A stretch of DNA of 64,000 nucleotides, from positions 1 through 64,000 of the forward strand of contig NC_013799.1 of the NCBI RefSeq assembly GCF_000010785.1, written 5' to 3'. Shown here piece after piece: positions 12,264-27,420 of the stretch. Position 1 is the first letter of the stretch; the number at the start of each line of letters is the position of its first letter. The notes under the pieces were generated by a model. The model had not been told where the DNA came from and did not search any database. It worked only from the letters and a program-made list of their open reading frames with translations. The DNA comes from Hydrogenobacter thermophilus TK-6. Its GTDB lineage: Bacteria; Aquificota; Aquificia; Aquificales; Aquificaceae. Position numbers and translations under genes: made by a program.

Positions 12264-12929
12264 TTAGAGCCTAAGTAGATGTCCATTATTCTTTAACCAT
12301 TCTCTGTGTTTCTCGTAATCGGGCATAAGCACCTTTACCTTATCCCAGAAGGCTTTACCGTGGCTTTTCTCTATAAGATGTACTAACTCATGAACAACTA
12401 CATAATCAATCACAGGCAGAGGAGCCATTATAAGCCTCCAAGAGAAGTTGAGGTTTCCACTGGAAGAACAAGATCCCCATCTTTTTTCTGCCTTGGTAAT
12501 AGAAACTTTATTGTATATAAATCCTCTTTTTTGAGCATATAGCTGAACTCTCTCTGATATTTTTTCATATGCTCTCTCTTTATACCATTTGATGAACAGG
12601 CCTTTTGCTAAAGGTTGATAATCTCTCAAAAGAAAGAAGCCATTATCAAATTTTAGTGGTGTATCCTGCTGGTTGACTATATATAACTTGTAAGATTTTC
12701 CAAGATAGAGGAACCCTTCTCCGCTTACAAACTCTTTTTTCGCAAATTTTGGGTCTCTACTAAGAATTTCTTTTTTCTTTTCTTCTATCCATTTGGAGTG
12801 TTTTATAACAAATTTTCTTATAGTTTCTTCACTTACTTCAAATGGTGCTTTAACTATTAAAGTTGCATTATCGGTTATCTGGAGGGTTATGGTTTTTCTT
12901 TTTGACCGAATTATTTTATCAATTTCCAT
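12264..12929 (-). CDS. YgjP-like zinc metallopeptidase (DUF45/WLM-type) in the restriction operon
   Basis: A 221-residue protein of the YgjP (DUF45) family. It contains a gluzincin motif HELVH (180-184), a third histidine in SHGKAFW (about 190) and the family-typical WGSCSSSGNLNFSWRL segment (about 151-166). The frame is open to 12959, but GGAGGT seven bases before the ATG at 12929 fixes the start. It overlaps the hsdR end by 11 bases, so it is translationally linked to the type I restriction system. YgjP proteins often sit beside type I restriction genes; their role there is not established. Confidence 0.85.
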   Translation of the reverse strand: MEIDKIIRSKRKTITLQITDNATLIVKAPFEVSEETIRKFVIKHSKWIEEKKKEILSRDPKFAKKEFVSGEGFLYLGKSYKLYIVNQQDTPLKFDNGFFLLRDYQPLAKGLFIKWYKERAYEKISERVQLYAQKRGFIYNKVSITKAEKRWGSCSSSGNLNFSWRLIMAPLPVIDYVVVHELVHLIEKSHGKAFWDKVKVLMPDYEKHREWLKNNGHLLRL

Positions 12930-15900
12930 CTGTTTTACCTCCATAAATGTGATATGCAAGCTCTAATAGTCTTTGAGCTATTTCATTTCTTTTGTTAAAG
13001 ATATTATTATCTCGTCCTTGCTTCAATAAATGGGAAATTATCTCACCTATTAGTTCTTTTTGTTTTGTGTAGTTTTCCCAGAAATCGACTATTTTTATTT
13101 TTCCTTTGATGATTTTTAATATATCTTTGGTTAGTTTAACCAAGAATTCAACCTGATCTGGGCTGTATTTTTCTAAAGGTTCCTTACCCAAGATCATATC
13201 TTTCAGTAATCCTAAGAATGGCATTTCCTTTTTCGGGTCTAATTCGTATGTGTTTTCTTCCTCTCTTCCTTTTTTAATCTCAATTCTTAAGTTTTCTAAC
13301 TTCTCAGCCAGTAAGTCCCAATTTTCTTTATATTCTTCAAGAATCTTTTTTAGTTTGTCTGAAAAACGTTCATACAATTCAGGGTCTTCTTCAAAATGTT
13401 TTTCAATATGTTCTTTTATTGCATACTCCAATTCTACTGCTTTGGCTTTTGGTGGTTTTTGTTTTAATTTAATAGTAAACTCATCAGACAATAAAGGAAT
13501 AGGAGGAATTTTTGGGTCTATTCCTTTTGATACCAAGTATTGCTCTACAATTTCTCTTATCTTATTGCTTACGTCTTTTATGCTTAGTTTATCGTCTCTG
13601 TACCTTTGTCTTGCAGCTTCTTTTATAAAGTTAATAACCTTTAAGTCTTTTGTATACTTTAATGCTTCTGGATCAGGAAGAAGCTTGTCTAATGTGCTAT
13701 TAAACTTGCGAACAAGAGTTATAAACTCTTCTCTTATCTCTTCATCTTCAAGCAGGTCTATACATTCATCAATATTCTCTCTCCAATTAGAGATTTTAAA
13801 TTTTTTGAAAAAATCCTCTATTTGATTGTGGATATATTTAAGTTCATCTTTAATTTTTGATTTATTGACAACAGTTTGACTTATTTCTTCAATATCACTA
13901 TCAGAGTAAACTGCAAGAGCTTCTTTCAAATGATTAAATACACCAACATAGTCAACTACATAGCCACAATATTTATTTTTATAAACTCTGTTAACTCTTG
14001 CTATTGCCTGCAGTAATCTATGTCCTTTTAGTACATTATCAAGATATAAAGCTTGCTCTATTGGAGCATCAAAACCTGTAACAAGCATCTCGTTTACAAC
14101 GATTATACCCACATCCCCGTTTATTCCTATTTTTTCATCACTTTTGTTAAATGGCATCTTAAAACTTTTTATATTTTTGTCATGCTCATTAACATCTGTA
14201 TACTCTTTTTTGTAAATTTGTGGGTCATCATTGGGTGTGCCAGATATTATAACGGCTACTTTTAACCTTTTTAAGGTGTCTATATCAATGTTGTTAGGGT
14301 TATTTTTTTCAAGTTCTGCTATTTTTTCTTTAAGTGCTTCCTCAAGCTTTTCTTTGTATCTTACAGCTGCGAGTCTTGATACAGCGATAACCTGTGCTTT
14401 AAAACCATTTGGAAAAATGTGGGTTATGTAATGCTCTATTATATCTTTTGCTTTTTCTTTTATTACATTTTCATTTTCAAGGTAGCTCTTCCAAGTGTAT
14501 TTCCCTAATATAAGTTGCTTTTCTTCATTATCAAATGCATAGAAAACTGATTCAAACTTTGCGTTAGCTGCTTCTTCATCAGATATCTCTGCTAAATGTG
14601 CCCTTCCTTCGTATACAATTTCAACTGTTACACCGTCCTCAACAGCCTGTTTTATGGTGTATTTATCTATATAATCTCCAAATGTTTGCTCTGTCTTTTC
14701 TATAGGTGTTCCAGTGAAGGCGATCTTTACGGAGTTAGGAAGTGCTTTCCTTAGATTAGCTCCTAAAATGTTGTATTGAGTTCTGTGAGCTTCATCAATT
14801 AATACCAGAATGTTTGGAGATTCGTTAAGGGTTGGGAATTTTGCTGATAAATCTCTCTCTTGGAATTTATGAATCATTGCCATAACTAAATCAGGTGTGT
14901 CTGTTCGTAGAAGTTCTTTTAATTTTTCTATACTATCAGCATGATTAACTGTATAACCAACACTTTTTGAAGTAGCTCTTAGCTGTTTTTCAAGTTGTTC
15001 TCTATCGGTTATAAACACTATCTTAAATTTACTTAACTCGGGATCTTTATTTATTGCTCTGACAGTTAGCATCATGGTTAATGACTTACCCGACCCCTGT
15101 GTATGCCAAACTATGCCACCTTTTTCTTCTGGCGTTTGTCCCTCTTTTATTCTTTTTACTATCTTTTTTACAGCTCTGAATTGGTGATATCTTGGGACTA
15201 TTTTTATTACTCCTGGACCTTTGGAATCTTCAACAAAAAGGGTAAAAATGCGAAGTATATCTAATAAATTGTTTTTTGTAAGAGTCCCTTGAATTAAAAC
15301 ATCCTGGCTTGTTATTGTTCCATTTTTGTTTATATCCAAAAGTGTATAAGGGTACGGGTCTTTCCACTCGTTAAAATGTTCATATCCTGATGTGATAGTT
15401 CCCAATTTTGCCACTTGTTTTGATGTGGCAATCATAAATAGGTTATACCAGAAAAGTTTTTCATTTCCTTCTTTTGCTCCTCTTCTGTTTGAATATCTCA
15501 TAAGTTGAGTAATGGCTTCAGTTATTGGGTCTGTGATTGCTGGAGATTTGCATTCTACAACAACCAAAGGCAAGCCATTGACAAAAAGGACTATATCGGG
15601 AATAATATGTTTTCCAGTTCCAGGGATATTAACTTTAAATTGAGATATGGCAATAAAAGAGTTATTGTCTGGATTTTTAAAATCAATATACCTAACTGTT
15701 GGGCTTTTTTCTCCTGTTTTTCTATTTTCTGAGACTGATGTATTTTCAATTAATAAATCGTGAATCTCTCTATTGGCTTCAATTAGAGAATTTGCTTGTG
15801 GTGTTGTTATTCTTCTTACTACTTCATTTATTTGGTCATCTTCTATCCATGGGTTTATCCTTTTAATGGATTTTTTAAGTTCGTCTTCAAGAATAACCTC

Positions 15901-16086
15901 TCTAAAACTTTCTCTAAACTTTACACTATTACCATAGATAGGTTCGCCATTACTATCAAAGCTGATAATTTCTTTTACATCTTCAGGATTATTTTTATTT
16001 TGTCTGTAAATCTTCCAACCAATCTTTTGAAGCTGAGCAAGAAATGGATTTTCTACATAATATTCTTCATCAAGCTTAGCATACAT
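12919..16086 (-). CDS. hsdR: Type I restriction enzyme R subunit HsdR
   Basis: Motor and nuclease subunit, 1055 residues, that translocates and cuts unmodified DNA. An N-terminal PD-(D/E)xK nuclease has Asp164 and the VVVECKSPA motif (Glu178, Lys180). The SF2 helicase domain has Walker A TQGSGKS (329-335), DEAHRTQ and motif VI-like QAIARVNRVYKNK. The frame opens at a TTG at 16104, but AAGGAGAG just before the ATG at 16086 favours that start. The ribosome site lies inside the 3' end of the HEPN remnant. AT-rich codon use (many AAT, ATT, TTA) contrasts with the flanking host genes. Confidence 0.95.
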   Translation of the reverse strand: MYAKLDEEYYVENPFLAQLQKIGWKIYRQNKNNPEDVKEIISFDSNGEPIYGNSVKFRESFREVILEDELKKSIKRINPWIEDDQINEVVRRITTPQANSLIEANREIHDLLIENTSVSENRKTGEKSPTVRYIDFKNPDNNSFIAISQFKVNIPGTGKHIIPDIVLFVNGLPLVVVECKSPAITDPITEAITQLMRYSNRRGAKEGNEKLFWYNLFMIATSKQVAKLGTITSGYEHFNEWKDPYPYTLLDINKNGTITSQDVLIQGTLTKNNLLDILRIFTLFVEDSKGPGVIKIVPRYHQFRAVKKIVKRIKEGQTPEEKGGIVWHTQGSGKSLTMMLTVRAINKDPELSKFKIVFITDREQLEKQLRATSKSVGYTVNHADSIEKLKELLRTDTPDLVMAMIHKFQERDLSAKFPTLNESPNILVLIDEAHRTQYNILGANLRKALPNSVKIAFTGTPIEKTEQTFGDYIDKYTIKQAVEDGVTVEIVYEGRAHLAEISDEEAANAKFESVFYAFDNEEKQLILGKYTWKSYLENENVIKEKAKDIIEHYITHIFPNGFKAQVIAVSRLAAVRYKEKLEEALKEKIAELEKNNPNNIDIDTLKRLKVAVIISGTPNDDPQIYKKEYTDVNEHDKNIKSFKMPFNKSDEKIGINGDVGIIVVNEMLVTGFDAPIEQALYLDNVLKGHRLLQAIARVNRVYKNKYCGYVVDYVGVFNHLKEALAVYSDSDIEEISQTVVNKSKIKDELKYIHNQIEDFFKKFKISNWRENIDECIDLLEDEEIREEFITLVRKFNSTLDKLLPDPEALKYTKDLKVINFIKEAARQRYRDDKLSIKDVSNKIREIVEQYLVSKGIDPKIPPIPLLSDEFTIKLKQKPPKAKAVELEYAIKEHIEKHFEEDPELYERFSDKLKKILEEYKENWDLLAEKLENLRIEIKKGREEENTYELDPKKEMPFLGLLKDMILGKEPLEKYSPDQVEFLVKLTKDILKIIKGKIKIVDFWENYTKQKELIGEIISHLLKQGRDNNIFNKRNEIAQRLLELAYHIYGGKTDGN

Positions 16087-16087
16087 T

Positions 16088-16213
16088 TTAACTCTCCTTT
16101 TCAAGAAGAAAATTTACTGCCTTTTCCAGCTCTGGAAGTTTAAACTTTTTAATTTTCTCAATCTCTTCAATAATATCTTGTAGAATTATCTTTAATGTGC
16201 GTTTTTTAGACAT
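16088..16213 (-). pseudogene. Truncated HEPN-domain toxin (remnant)
   Basis: A 41-residue frame starts at the ATG at 16213, overlapping the mntA stop exactly as HEPN genes usually follow MNT genes. Its sequence, MSKKRTLKIILQDIIEEIEK then IKKF, matches the first helix of HEPN (DUF86-like) toxins. A full HEPN toxin is about 110-145 residues and carries an RX4-6H RNase motif. Here the frame ends in LEKES-stop just before hsdR, and no such motif is present. I read it as the 5' remnant of the toxin partner of mntA, cut by deletion. A genuine mini-protein is possible. Confidence 0.55.
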
Positions 16214-16496
16214 ATACAGCTTCCTCAAATATAGATGTTTTTAACCTTGGTTTAACGGCAGATTTTATTACAAGGTCAACCCTTTTTCCAAGTAGTTCTT
16301 CAAGGTAAAATTTTAAATCCATATAATTATCAAAAGTCTTATAGCCTTCTTTAAAATCAACAAGAATGTCCACATCACTCTCACTGCTCTCTTCTCCTCT
16401 TGCGTAAGAGCCAAAGATAGCTATCTCTTTTACTCCAAATTTTTCTGCTAAATAACTTTTATGTTCCTGTAAGATTTGATGTATTTTATTTTTCAT
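16206..16496 (-). CDS. MNT-domain nucleotidyltransferase antitoxin (MntA-like)
   Basis: Minimal nucleotidyltransferase of 96 residues with the signature GSYARGE (29-35), SDVD (Asp41, Asp43) and a third acidic residue in RVDLVI (Asp74). Such proteins AMPylate and silence HEPN RNase toxins. The gene starts where hsdS ends (four-base overlap) and its own stop overlaps the HEPN remnant. The triad appears intact although the toxin is not. It is embedded in a type I restriction operon, a common location for MNT-HEPN pairs. Confidence 0.85.
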   Translation of the reverse strand: MKNKIHQILQEHKSYLAEKFGVKEIAIFGSYARGEESSESDVDILVDFKEGYKTFDNYMDLKFYLEELLGKRVDLVIKSAVKPRLKTSIFEEAVYV

Positions 16497-17773
16497 TTTT
16501 TGTCCTCCTCCTTAATTAATTTATTTACCCTAACCTTTCCTGTAAGCAAGTCTTCCATCAAACCTTTTTTGATACGCTCAAGTTTTTGCCTGTAGGCTTG
16601 TTCTTTTTCAATAACATTATCTATCTGTGAGAGGATTTCAGCAATGCGCTGTTGTTCGGTAAGTGGGGGAAGGGGAATAGAATAATTCTTCAATTCTCTT
16701 GAACTAATTGCCTCAAAAGTACTACCTTGACTTAAATTAATAAGATTATTTATAGAAAACTGTAAATAATACCAGATAAATAGGTTGTGGGTAATGCTTT
16801 TATTAGTAACTATGGAGCATAAACCTCTACCTATACAGTATTCTCTATTAGCAATGTTTAAAGCGCCTACCGGAGCTCTAACACTTAAGAGTATGCTTTC
16901 TTTTTTTGCGATTTTTAAAGGTTTTTCTATCCAATTTATAGGATTTGGATATTTTGAAGTAAATTCTGCATTACCTTGTAAGAATGGAATTCCTTTTTCT
17001 TTTTTATTGATTAAAACTGAAGATGGAGATTGTCCCATAATAATAAAACATACTTCCCCCAATCTTACCACTTCCCACTCTTCCGGAATTCTTCCAATTG
17101 GTGAATCTTTAAATTTATGTGTTTTCTCACTTCGGATTTTTCCATTTTCATCAATGCCTTTTGTGAGTAAATCCTGCATCAAGCCTTGTTTTATACGCTT
17201 GTATTTTTCTATGATTTTGTCGGTTTTCTCAATTGCACGGTCAACAGTTTCTAAAATTTCGGCAATTTTTTGCTGCTCGGGAAGGGGAGGGAGGGGAATT
17301 GCGAATTTTGCTAATTCTGATGGTTTTATGGAAACTTGATTTACAGCTTGACCTGATAAATTTCTAAGCCTACTTCTTATATCTTCTTTTTTCAAAAAAT
17401 TTATTAAAAAGAACGGATCAAGAATATGCTTTTTAGTCCTTAATAAAAGTAAATTCATTCCATGAATTAAAGTAGGTATACTCCCATCATATATAGCACA
17501 TTTTCCTATATGCTCGATGCTATTAATATGACTGAATAAAATATCCCCTCTTTGCATTTGGTATTTATTTACCTTATATCGTAATTCTTCGGTAATATAA
17601 CCTAATTTAGATTTGTCTATTTTACCCTCAGAGATTGTCTCAATTCTAGTTATAGGCAGTCCTTCTTTTCTGATCTCAGAAAAACTATAAACATAACCAT
17701 TTCTTAATTTTTCAATTACTTCCCCCAACTTTACCTTTTTCCACCCTTCTGGTAATTTAACATCTTCACCCAT
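16493..17773 (-). CDS. hsdS: Type I restriction enzyme specificity subunit HsdS
   Basis: DNA-recognition subunit, 426 residues, with two target recognition domains. Each is followed by a conserved helical spacer: [20 protein letters not shown] (about 155-175) and [20 protein letters not shown] (about 371-390). The spacers end in near-identical [15 protein letters not shown] and [15 protein letters not shown]. The half-repeated layout implies a bipartite recognition sequence. It overlaps the hsdM stop by eight bases. Confidence 0.95.
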
Positions 17774-20207
17774 TTATATACCCCAACTGTTTTAAAAATT
17801 CATTAAGTTTTTTCACTTCCTCATCTCTTTCTGTTATCAGCTGGTTTAAAGAAATTTTATACTTATCCCATAACTTTTCAAAAATTTTTATAACTTCTTT
17901 CTTTTCGGCATTTATGTATTTTTCCAACTCTTGTTTTATAGATTCTTTAAACTTTTCCAACACCAACCCTTTTGCTTCTTCTTCTGTCAATGTCTCTCTT
18001 TTTTCTCTTATAATTTTTGCAAGTTCTTGTTGCTTTTGTTTTAGCTCTTTATTTAGATTCTTTAATTCTTTTTCCTTTTCATTTATCTTCTCGGCTAAAT
18101 CTTTCCACTTTTGTGCCTCTTTAACAGCTGCTTCATTGCCGTTTGATAGCAAGTCATTAATAGTTTGTTTTATGAATTCTTTCATCTTTTTAGTCGTTTT
18201 CTCTCCTAAATCTTCCTCATCCCAGTCTTCCACTTCTTCCAAAATCTCGTTTAATTCTCCTTCTACCTGTGCAATGTTGCTTTCAATTTCTTCTATCTCT
18301 TCTAACTCCTTTGCAAAAAACTTCCTTTCAATCATCTCATCATCAATAAGTGTCTTACTCCATCCAGATGATACTATGGTTTTAAAATCATACCTTAAAT
18401 TTTCCCACCAGTTGACAAACACACCAGCAATTTTAAACTCGTCAAGAACCCCTAAAGGCAGTAAACTCTCTTTTAAATCTTCTAAAGCCTTTTCCCTAAA
18501 ACTCCACAGATTATTATTTTTTGCAAATGCCTCTATATCCTTTTCAACATTTTCCCACCACTCATTTAACTTTTGGAAGTGTATATCGTATGTTTGCTTT
18601 ACTCCTTCATAATTTTCAATAACTTCTTTTATTTTGCTTTTCTCATTAATATAAGGTATAAAGTCCAAACTATCCTTGTCTATTTCAATAAACAAGTTAT
18701 CAAGACTAATATTAAACTTTTTCATCTGTGGTTTATAAAGTTCAAGCTCTTGTTTTGGTATGTACCCATTTATGTGGTAATGGACATTTTCTATTTCTGG
18801 CTCGGGTGAGTTATCCACATATCTACGAATATTTAAATTAAAATCGTTTTCCTCAATCTCTTTAATATCTACAAGGCGTGAATATTTTGGAATTTCTAAA
18901 TTGTTATCAAACACCGTAACAATTTTTTCAATATCCTCAGGTCTTAAATAATTTTGATTTCTTCCTTCTCCATATTCTCTGTCTGCGTTGATAAATAAAA
19001 TCTTGTTTTTTAGGTGGTCTGGCTTTCTTTTGTTAATAACTATAATACATGCAGGAATTCCTGTATTGTAAAAGAGCTTAGGGGGTAATCCTATTATGGC
19101 TTGAATAAGGTCATCTTTAACTATACCTTCTCTTATAACTTTTTCTTGACCGCCTCTAAACAAAACACCATGAGGCATAACAGTTGCCATTATCCCATCT
19201 GGTTTTAAGCTGGCAATCATATGCTGTAAAAACATTAAATCCGCTTTTTTTCCAGTTTCAGGTGTAAAACCATATTTAAATCTTTCAGGGAAATGCATAT
19301 TTGCTCTTGTGTAATTTTGTGAGAAAGGAGGATTTGCTAAAACTATATCAAACTGTTTAATATAACCATTTTCAACAAATTTAGGGTTTGTAAGTGTGTC
19401 CTCGTTTTCAATTTGTGCATCTGGTATGCCGTGAAGTATCATATTCATTTTACATATAGACCATGTTACTCCGTTATTTTCCTGTCCATAAAGAGCCAGA
19501 TTCTTGGGATTTTGACCTTTTTCCTCTACATACTGTCTTGCTTCAATCAAAAAACCACCAGACCCAACGGTAGGATCGTATATTCTCATGCCTTCCTTAG
19601 GTTTTACAAGTCTAACCATCAATGTTTTTACACTTGGAGGAGTGTAAAACTCACCACCTTTTTTACCAGCAGAATCAGCAAACTCTTTTAGTAAGTATTC
19701 ATAAGCAGCTCCAAGGAGGTCAGGAAACTCAAAATCCTCATTTCTTAAACGGTATTTATTGAAATGGTGTATCAAGTCAATAAGTTGCTGGTCTTTCAGG
19801 CGAGTTTTACCTTTTACAGCGTTAAAATCTATATGCTTTAAAACACCTTCAAGCTCAGGATTTGCTTCTTCTAAAGCTGCAAGTGCTTTATTTAGCTGAT
19901 TGCCAACATCTTCCTTAAGTGTTAAAATGTATTCCCATCTTGCTTTTTCCGGAACAAAAAACGTTTCAGAGTATATATTAGGATCTTCAAGAATCTCTTT
20001 TATTTCTTCGTCTGAGTATCCTAAGTTTTTATATTCTTTAAATAATTTTTCACGCTCTTCATCAAACACATCTGACATACGCTTTAAAAAAAGCATACCA
20101 AAGATATACTCTTTATATTCTGAGGCATCCATTTTGCCCCTTAATATATCTGCTGCTTTAAACAGATGTGTCTCAAGCTCCCTAAGGGTTATCTTCTTCT
20201 TTTCCAT
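17766..20207 (-). CDS. hsdM: Type I restriction-modification DNA methyltransferase subunit HsdM, extended
   Basis: N6-adenine methyltransferase subunit, 813 residues. An N-terminal HsdM helical domain precedes the Rossmann fold. The SAM-binding motif is DPTVGSGGF (211-219) and the catalytic motif is NPPF (292-295); GGEFYTPP (185-192) is also typical. Many HsdM proteins have about 500-530 residues. Here a C-terminal extension of roughly 300 residues is dominated by charged, heptad-like helices (about 640-800), probably a coiled coil. The ATG is two bases from the moxR stop, and its GGTGGAGGT ribosome site lies within the moxR 3' end. Confidence 0.95.
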
Positions 20208-26391: not shown

Positions 26392-27420
26392 ATGGATCGC
26401 ACCATAATTTTCAACCCGCAGGGAGACAGAGAAACAAGCAAGCGCAAGGTGATTTTTGGCAATCCTACCAATATAATGGAGCTTAATAATGTAAAGTATC
26501 AGTGGGCTTTTGACCTCTATAAGACTATGGGATTTACCAACTTCTGGGTGCCGGAAGAGATTCCCATGCACGAAGATAAAAAGCAGTATGAAAAGGATCT
26601 GTCGCCCTACGAGAAGAGAGCCTACGAGATGGTACTGAGCTTTCTCATAGCCCTTGACTCCTATCAGGTAAACATGCTCAAAGAGTTTGCCAGATACATA
26701 ACCGCTCCCGAGCTGGTGATGGCTCTGACTTCTCAGGAGTTTCAGGAGGCTCTTCACTCTTACTCTTACCAGTTTATCCTGGAGAGCGTGGTGGAACCAC
26801 AGGTGGCTGACGAGATATACAACTACTGGAGACAGGATACTGTCCTTATGGAGCGCAACCAAGTTATAGCACAGCTATACAACGAGTTTATACGCCATCC
26901 CACCGAGGAGAACTTTATAAAAGCAACCTTCGGAAACTATGTGCTGGAAAGCTTATACTTTTATTCAGGCTTTGCCTTCTTTTACACGCTGGGCCGTCAG
27001 GGCAAGATGAGAAACACAGTCCAGCAAATTAAGTATATTAACCGAGATGAATTAACTCACGTTACATTATTTCGAAATATTATACAGACCATAAAGCAAG
27101 AGAACCCAGAACTCTTTACGCCTGAGCTGGAAAAGTGGGTTTACGAGTTTTTCAAATACGCCACCGATGCGGAGATAAAGTGGGGACAGTATGTGACCCA
27201 GAACCAGATTCTTGGCATAAATAACACCCTCATAGACCGCTACATCAAGTACCTTGCCAACCTCAGGCTCACCCAGCTGGGCTACAAACCTCTCTATCCA
27301 GAGATTACCGAAAACCCCATGAAGTGGATAGACCAGTTTAGAACCATAAACGACACCAAGACTGACTTTTTCCAAGCAAAGCCCCAGACCTACGCCAAGA
27401 GAAGCGAACTAAAGTGGTAG
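26392..27420 (+). CDS. nrdB: Ribonucleoside-diphosphate reductase class I, beta subunit NrdB
   Basis: Radical-generating ferritin-like subunit, 342 residues. By comparison with E. coli R2 the metal ligands are Asp89, Glu119, His122 (QEALHS), Glu220 and His223 (RDELTH). The radical tyrosine is conserved as Tyr126 (HSYSY). AGGAGGG precedes the ATG. Codons 213-230 (27028-27081), covering the RDE..H helix, use ATT, CGA and TTA where the rest of the gene uses ATA, AGA/CGC and CTT/CTC. The Aquifex aeolicus homologue is reported to carry an intein of about 346 residues; this one has none. Confidence 0.96.
   Translation: MDRTIIFNPQGDRETSKRKVIFGNPTNIMELNNVKYQWAFDLYKTMGFTNFWVPEEIPMHEDKKQYEKDLSPYEKRAYEMVLSFLIALDSYQVNMLKEFARYITAPELVMALTSQEFQEALHSYSYQFILESVVEPQVADEIYNYWRQDTVLMERNQVIAQLYNEFIRHPTEENFIKATFGNYVLESLYFYSGFAFFYTLGRQGKMRNTVQQIKYINRDELTHVTLFRNIIQTIKQENPELFTPELEKWVYEFFKYATDAEIKWGQYVTQNQILGINNTLIDRYIKYLANLRLTQLGYKPLYPEITENPMKWIDQFRTINDTKTDFFQAKPQTYAKRSELKW

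What the first reader, a model, noticed from the sequence alone, without database searches (positions are those of the whole stretch)
27028..27081. Foreign-codon patch exactly over the metal-binding helix of nrdB: possible intein or homing scar
Codons 213-230 of nrdB use ATT, CGA, TTA, GAT, GTT and AAT, while the rest of the gene and its neighbours favour ATA, AGA/CGC, CTC/CTT and GTG. The protein sequence (RDELTH region, metal ligands Glu220 and His223) is normal. A short recoded patch in the most conserved active-site motif is what one expects after gene conversion, loss of an intein, or recoding that blocks a homing endonuclease. The Aquifex aeolicus R2 gene is reported to hold an intein of about 346 residues; I do not know its exact insertion point.
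Basis: partly seen in the sequence, partly recalled or inferred. Interest (0 to 1): 0.62.

Follow-up and report, generated by a model that had tools for sequence, protein, structure and literature searches.

The report
Possible homing scar in nrdB
A heat-loving bacterium carries 57 bases of foreign-looking spelling inside an essential DNA-synthesis gene, centred on the exact point where some relatives carry a self-splicing parasitic insert (an intein), so it may be the scar of a past attack, but the donor sequence has not been found and chance is not ruled out.

Summary
Codons 212-230 of nrdB (27025-27081) are the most atypical stretch for codon usage in the 64 kb window and second of 129,640 windows in 464 kb of this genome. 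None of 51 other Aquificaceae nrdB genes shows it. The protein is unchanged.

In all four intein-bearing Aquificaceae the intein lies between residues 221 and 222 (27054|27055), within 1.5 bp of the patch midpoint. Some phage nrdB genes also carry an HNH-encoding, group I-like intron at 218|219, inside the same patch.

The patch is not closer to intein-bearing genes, and it keeps Thr222 where every intein-bearing gene has Cys. This genome has no intein or LAGLIDADG relative. The spelling fits AT-rich phages. Two uncultivated viruses with Aquificaceae-type nrdB share unusual codons in the right half, but that likeness is not significant once AT-rich spelling is allowed for, and the left half does not match.

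Best reading: a short gene-conversion scar at a homing site, templated by an intein-free, probably viral nrdB (confidence about 0.45). Rivals: chance drift, or intein homing followed by precise loss.

The parts
26392..27420 (+). nrdB, class I ribonucleotide reductase small subunit (R2), 342 aa, uninterrupted
   Evidence: single copy in the genome
27025..27081 (+). recoded patch, codons 212-230 (reader: 27028-27081), AT-rich and CGN-Arg spelling, protein unchanged
   Evidence: segmentation; codon scores
27054..27055 (+). position equivalent to the Aquificaceae NrdB intein insertion site, between Leu221 and Thr222 (Leu229|Cys230 of A. aeolicus); empty here
   Evidence: PMC8772380
27045..27046 (+). 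position equivalent to the HNH-encoding group I-like intron insertion in some phage nrdB genes, between Arg218 and Asp219; empty here
27049..27051 (+). Glu220 codon (GAA), di-iron ligand, equivalent to Glu228 of A. aeolicus R2
   Evidence: alignment; ligand role from PMC8772380
27058..27060 (+). His223 codon (CAC), di-iron ligand, equivalent to His231 of A. aeolicus R2
   Evidence: alignment; ligand role from PMC8772380

Best explanation
The patch is a short gene-conversion tract at a homing-endonuclease target. Most likely a homing endonuclease (of the NrdB intein, or of an element using the neighbouring intron site) broke nrdB at this motif, and the break was repaired over about 57 bp from a divergent but protein-identical, intein-free nrdB, most plausibly carried by an AT-rich virus of Aquificaceae. 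The result is an intein-free gene with foreign spelling centred on the cut site. Shown: the foreign spelling, its limits, its centring on the intein site, its absence from relatives, and the existence of Aquificaceae-type viral nrdB genes without an intein. Inferred: the break, the repair, and the identity of the donor. Any benefit from losing the target site is speculation.
For: The intein site in four Aquificaceae genomes is 27054|27055 and the patch midpoint is 27053. The patch is far likelier under AT-rich phage usage (log-likelihood about -14 to -16) or Aquificaceae-virus usage (-18.9) than under host usage (-26 to -27.5). Two viral contigs (L093 from a 129 kb contig, L094 from an 88 kb contig) carry intein-free nrdB 74-75% identical in protein, placed inside the Aquificaceae nrdB tree near Hydrogenobacter. 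They share TTA ACT/ACC CAT GTT ACA TTG TTT CGC AAT with the patch codon for codon or nearly so, and a degenerate pattern for that spelling matched only these two contigs in 2.9 million viral contigs and none in about 85,000 prokaryote genomes. One of them encodes a UvsX-like recombinase near nrdB. Phages carry HNH-encoding group I-like introns at 218|219, so the same 57 bp is a target for two kinds of homing element.
Against: No donor found: the likeness to L093 over codons 221-230 (26/30) has P = 0.007 under host usage but 0.07-0.09 under AT-rich or virus usage, and codons 213-220 do not match the virus (17/24). The nearest sequence overall is a cellular gene, L047, at 45/54. This genome holds no intein or LAGLIDADG relative. 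The site is not a hot spot of synonymous change in other Aquificaceae. Inteins and spontaneous recombination both favour conserved motifs, so the coincidence of place is weaker than it looks.
Confidence: 0.45

Rival explanations
1. Ordinary drift: the patch is the tail of normal codon variation, with no transfer event.
For: The distribution of 18-codon scores has a continuous tail; a score about as low occurs in one other gene of near-normal usage within 464 kb. No donor is identified. The synonymous distance to congeners is matched by another window of the gene.
Against: Against the gene's own usage the score is -6.65 while the lowest anywhere in 51 relatives is -4.44; both Arg codons are CGA, which is 1-2% of Arg codons here; the midpoint of the segment falls within 1.5 bp of the intein site.
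Confidence: 0.27
2. Intein homing followed by precise loss: an intein-bearing donor co-converted the flanks, then the intein was removed exactly, leaving the foreign flanks.
For: The site matches; inteins are patchy here, 4 of about 52 genes; G045 shows Cys222 and Ser225 like distant intein-bearing genes, so flank change with intein gain is plausible.
Against: All four intein-bearing genes have Cys222; the window has Thr222 as ACT, and its patch is less like intein-bearing flanks (34-37/54) than host-style random recoding (39.5-40.9). Loss by recombination with an empty allele would erase so narrow a patch. No relative of this intein was confirmed in viral contigs.
Confidence: 0.16
3. Selected recoding: synonymous changes accumulated to block a homing endonuclease.
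For: The patch differs from the A. aeolicus homing site at 19 of 54 bases, more than host-style recoding gives (P about 0.002), and is centred on the site.
Against: The same distance is expected from AT-rich foreign spelling; about 18 separate changes are not needed to destroy a site; no intein was found in the five genomes of the genus.
Confidence: 0.07
4. A DNA or RNA signal (hairpin, promoter, structured RNA) explains the spelling.
For: The RNA folds into a hairpin spanning the patch, z -2.6, stronger than in most synonymous samples (P 0.007-0.017).
Against: Several relatives without the patch fold as well at this site, and the patch ranks only 72nd of 323 windows in nrdB; no promoter- or terminator-like site, no Rfam match; the next gene downstream is on the other strand.
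Confidence: 0.05

Closest known systems
Aquifex aeolicus NrdB (RIR2) intein, LAGLIDADG type (PMC8772380)
   Same: Same gene family, same insertion point (Leu|Cys between the Glu and His iron ligands); the patch is centred on it
   Different: No intein in this genome; the residue after the site is Thr, not Cys; flanks not alike in DNA
Co-conversion tracts beside homing sites (inteins, group I introns, SegG-type marker exclusion; cited in PMC10643990 and PMC2814812)
   Same: Short foreign tract of coding sequence around a homing site
   Different: No element present, donor unknown, no experiment; here it is read only from codon usage
Phage nrdB group I-like introns with HNH endonucleases (Alicyclobacillus phage KKP_3916; IMG/VR contigs behind L138, L140, L142)
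   Same: Insertion at Arg218|Asp219, inside the patch
   Different: No intron here; the patch has CGA, not CGT, before the site
nrdB of uncultivated Aquificaceae-type viruses (IMGVR_UViG_3300005856_000023, 3300042858_000011)
   Same: Same protein motif; unusual codons shared over 221-229
   Different: Codons 213-220 differ at nearly every synonymous site; 80% identity over the patch, not the donor itself

Membership tests
Homing-site gene-conversion (co-conversion) tract | Tract lies at a known homing-element insertion site | tested here: met
   Intein site 27054|27055 against tract 27025-27081; phage intron site 27045|27046
Homing-site gene-conversion (co-conversion) tract | Tract differs in character from the rest of the gene and is absent from close relatives | tested here: met
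   Codon usage; absent in 51 relatives including 4 congeners
Homing-site gene-conversion (co-conversion) tract | Identifiable donor with matching DNA | tested here: inconclusive
   Best matches 45/54 cellular and 43/54 viral, not significant once AT-rich spelling is allowed for; metagenome contigs could not be scanned
Homing-site gene-conversion (co-conversion) tract | Cleavage by the homing endonuclease followed by repair | not testable with these tools
   Needs a biochemical or genetic assay
Gene that lost the Aquificaceae NrdB intein | Cys after the insertion site as in intein-bearing genes | tested here: not met
   Thr222 (ACT); all four intein-bearing genes have TGC/TGT
Gene that lost the Aquificaceae NrdB intein | Flanks closer in DNA to intein-bearing genes than expected | tested here: not met
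   34-37 of 54 against 39.5-40.9 expected
Gene that lost the Aquificaceae NrdB intein | Residual intein sequence or relative in the genome | tested here: not met

The most novel reading that the evidence does not exclude
A virus-borne, intein-free nrdB served as repair template at an intein homing site of its host, leaving an intein-free cellular gene with a 57-bp viral patch; that is, viruses can re-spell homing sites in host genes and so act as donors of intein-resistant alleles.
Probability: 0.15. Interest if true: 0.65.

Novelty: new member of a known kind. Interest (0 to 1): 0.4.

Why it matters
If real, it shows that traces of homing-endonuclease attack can be read in genes that carry no intein, from local codon usage alone, and that viral ribonucleotide reductase genes may act as repair templates for their hosts. 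It also gives a testable case in a gene where the intein has been reported to aid iron loading (PMC8772380).

Tried and rejected
Donor search: blastn of the patch in phages and plasmids gave only chance-level hits, the best a Bacillus velezensis plasmid nrdB at E = 0.08. A 20-mer from the left half hit one phage nrdB in IMG/VR (L060/L102), but its protein is only 43% identical and such a match is plausible by chance among AT-rich nrdB genes. Exact and degenerate patterns gave no genome hit and the exact 39-mer no viral hit; the window's own genome may be left out of those scans. No second copy of the patch in the own genome. General hot spot of synonymous change at the site in Aquificaceae: no. 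Similar patches in other relatives: L047 and L031 looked suggestive but are within noise. Co-conversion in intein-bearing G045: weak, only Cys222/Ser225. Hairpin, promoter and Rfam explanations rejected. Intein relatives in viral contigs: none confirmed. The Pectobacterium phage R2 intein sits at the other metal-ligand motif, not here.

Full report
What was checked. The window is the first 64 kb of a 1,743,135-bp single-contig genome. The size fits Hydrogenobacter thermophilus TK-6 (identification from memory of the assembly size; PMC3111988 gives 1,742,932 for the DSM assembly of the same strain). nrdB runs 26392-27420 directly behind nrdA and is single copy.

The patch is real as a codon-usage anomaly. 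Scored against genome usage, the 18 codons 213-230 give z = -5.3, the lowest of the 64 kb window and second of 129,640 windows in 464 kb of the genome; the only lower one lies in a gene that is foreign throughout. A segmentation that was not told the limits returns codons 212-230, 27025-27081. Against each gene's own usage, the window's nrdB stands at -6.65 and the next of 51 other Aquificaceae genes at this site at -2.99. A caution: the tail of scores in this genome is continuous, so the anomaly alone would not exclude chance.

The intein site is inside the patch, at its centre. Of 136 Aquificota genomes searched, four carry nrdB split in frame by a 345-346-residue intein (G045, G001, G015, G008). 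In all four the junction is Leu221|Cys222 in window numbering, that is 27054|27055. The published A. aeolicus structure paper gives the same point, Leu229|Cys230 (PMC8772380). The midpoint of the segment found without knowledge of the site is 27053. Phage nrdB genes add a second element: four phages (Alicyclobacillus phage KKP_3916 and loci L138, L140, L142) have 750-820-bp insertions between Arg218 and Asp219 that encode HNH endonucleases (PF13392); the one tested alone matches the group I intron model at 9.5e-7, below its gathering score. The location is therefore a target for two kinds of homing element. Inteins and group I introns prefer conserved motifs in general (PMC2814812), which weakens the force of the coincidence.

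What the patch is not. It is not shared by any relative, including four congeners. It is not nearer to intein-bearing genes: 34-37 of 54 bases, fewer than random host-style spelling would give. It has Thr222, whereas all intein-bearing genes have Cys222. The genome contains no relative of the intein and no LAGLIDADG_3 match. So a simple history of intein gain and loss is not favoured. Structural RNA, promoter and Rfam explanations found no support.

Where the spelling may come from. Codon usage of AT-rich phages explains the patch better than host usage by about 12 log units, and that of two Aquificaceae-type viruses by about 8. Those two viral contigs (L093/L152, 129 kb; L094/L151, 88 kb) carry intein-free nrdB 74-75% identical in protein that branches inside the Aquificaceae. 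They use TTA, GTT, ACA, TTG, CGC and AAT at codons 221-229. A degenerate pattern for that spelling matched only these two contigs in the viral collection and nothing in about 85,000 prokaryote genomes. However, the numerical likeness of the patch to L093 is not significant once an AT-rich donor is assumed (P 0.07-0.09 for codons 221-230; no likeness for 213-220), and the closest sequence over the whole patch is a cellular gene (L047, 45/54). The donor is therefore unidentified; a relative of these viruses is a fair guess, no more.

Verdict. The best-supported account is a short conversion tract at a homing site templated by an intein-free, probably viral nrdB (0.45). Drift is the main rival (0.27), then intein gain with precise loss (0.16). 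The kind of event is known; reading it in an intein-free gene from local codon usage is the new part.

Noticed in passing
window 12919-20207 (-): A type I restriction-modification system (HsdR 12919-16104, HsdS 16493-17773, HsdM 17766-20207) with strongly foreign, AT-rich codon usage, about 4 kb from nrdA.
   Followed up: partly
L030, L031, L036 (G004, G002, G003), codon 222: Three intein-free relatives of A. aeolicus carry the intein-type Cys222 and Ser225; they are better candidates for past intein loss, or for receptive empty sites, than the window genome.
   Followed up: no
L152 (IMGVR_UViG_3300005856_000023): Large AT-rich virus with Aquificaceae-type nrdB, GTP cyclohydrolase and UvsX-like recombinase genes; a likely virus of Aquificaceae that took nrdB from its host.
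   Followed up: partly
G000:C1:1105986-1106672 (outside the window): Gene with very foreign codon usage that holds the single lowest 18-codon window of the 464 kb examined.
   Followed up: no
G029-G033 (genus g4) and families f2, f3: Several Aquificota have only a distant R2 (25-31% identity) in place of this nrdB, suggesting gene replacement within the phylum.
   Followed up: no
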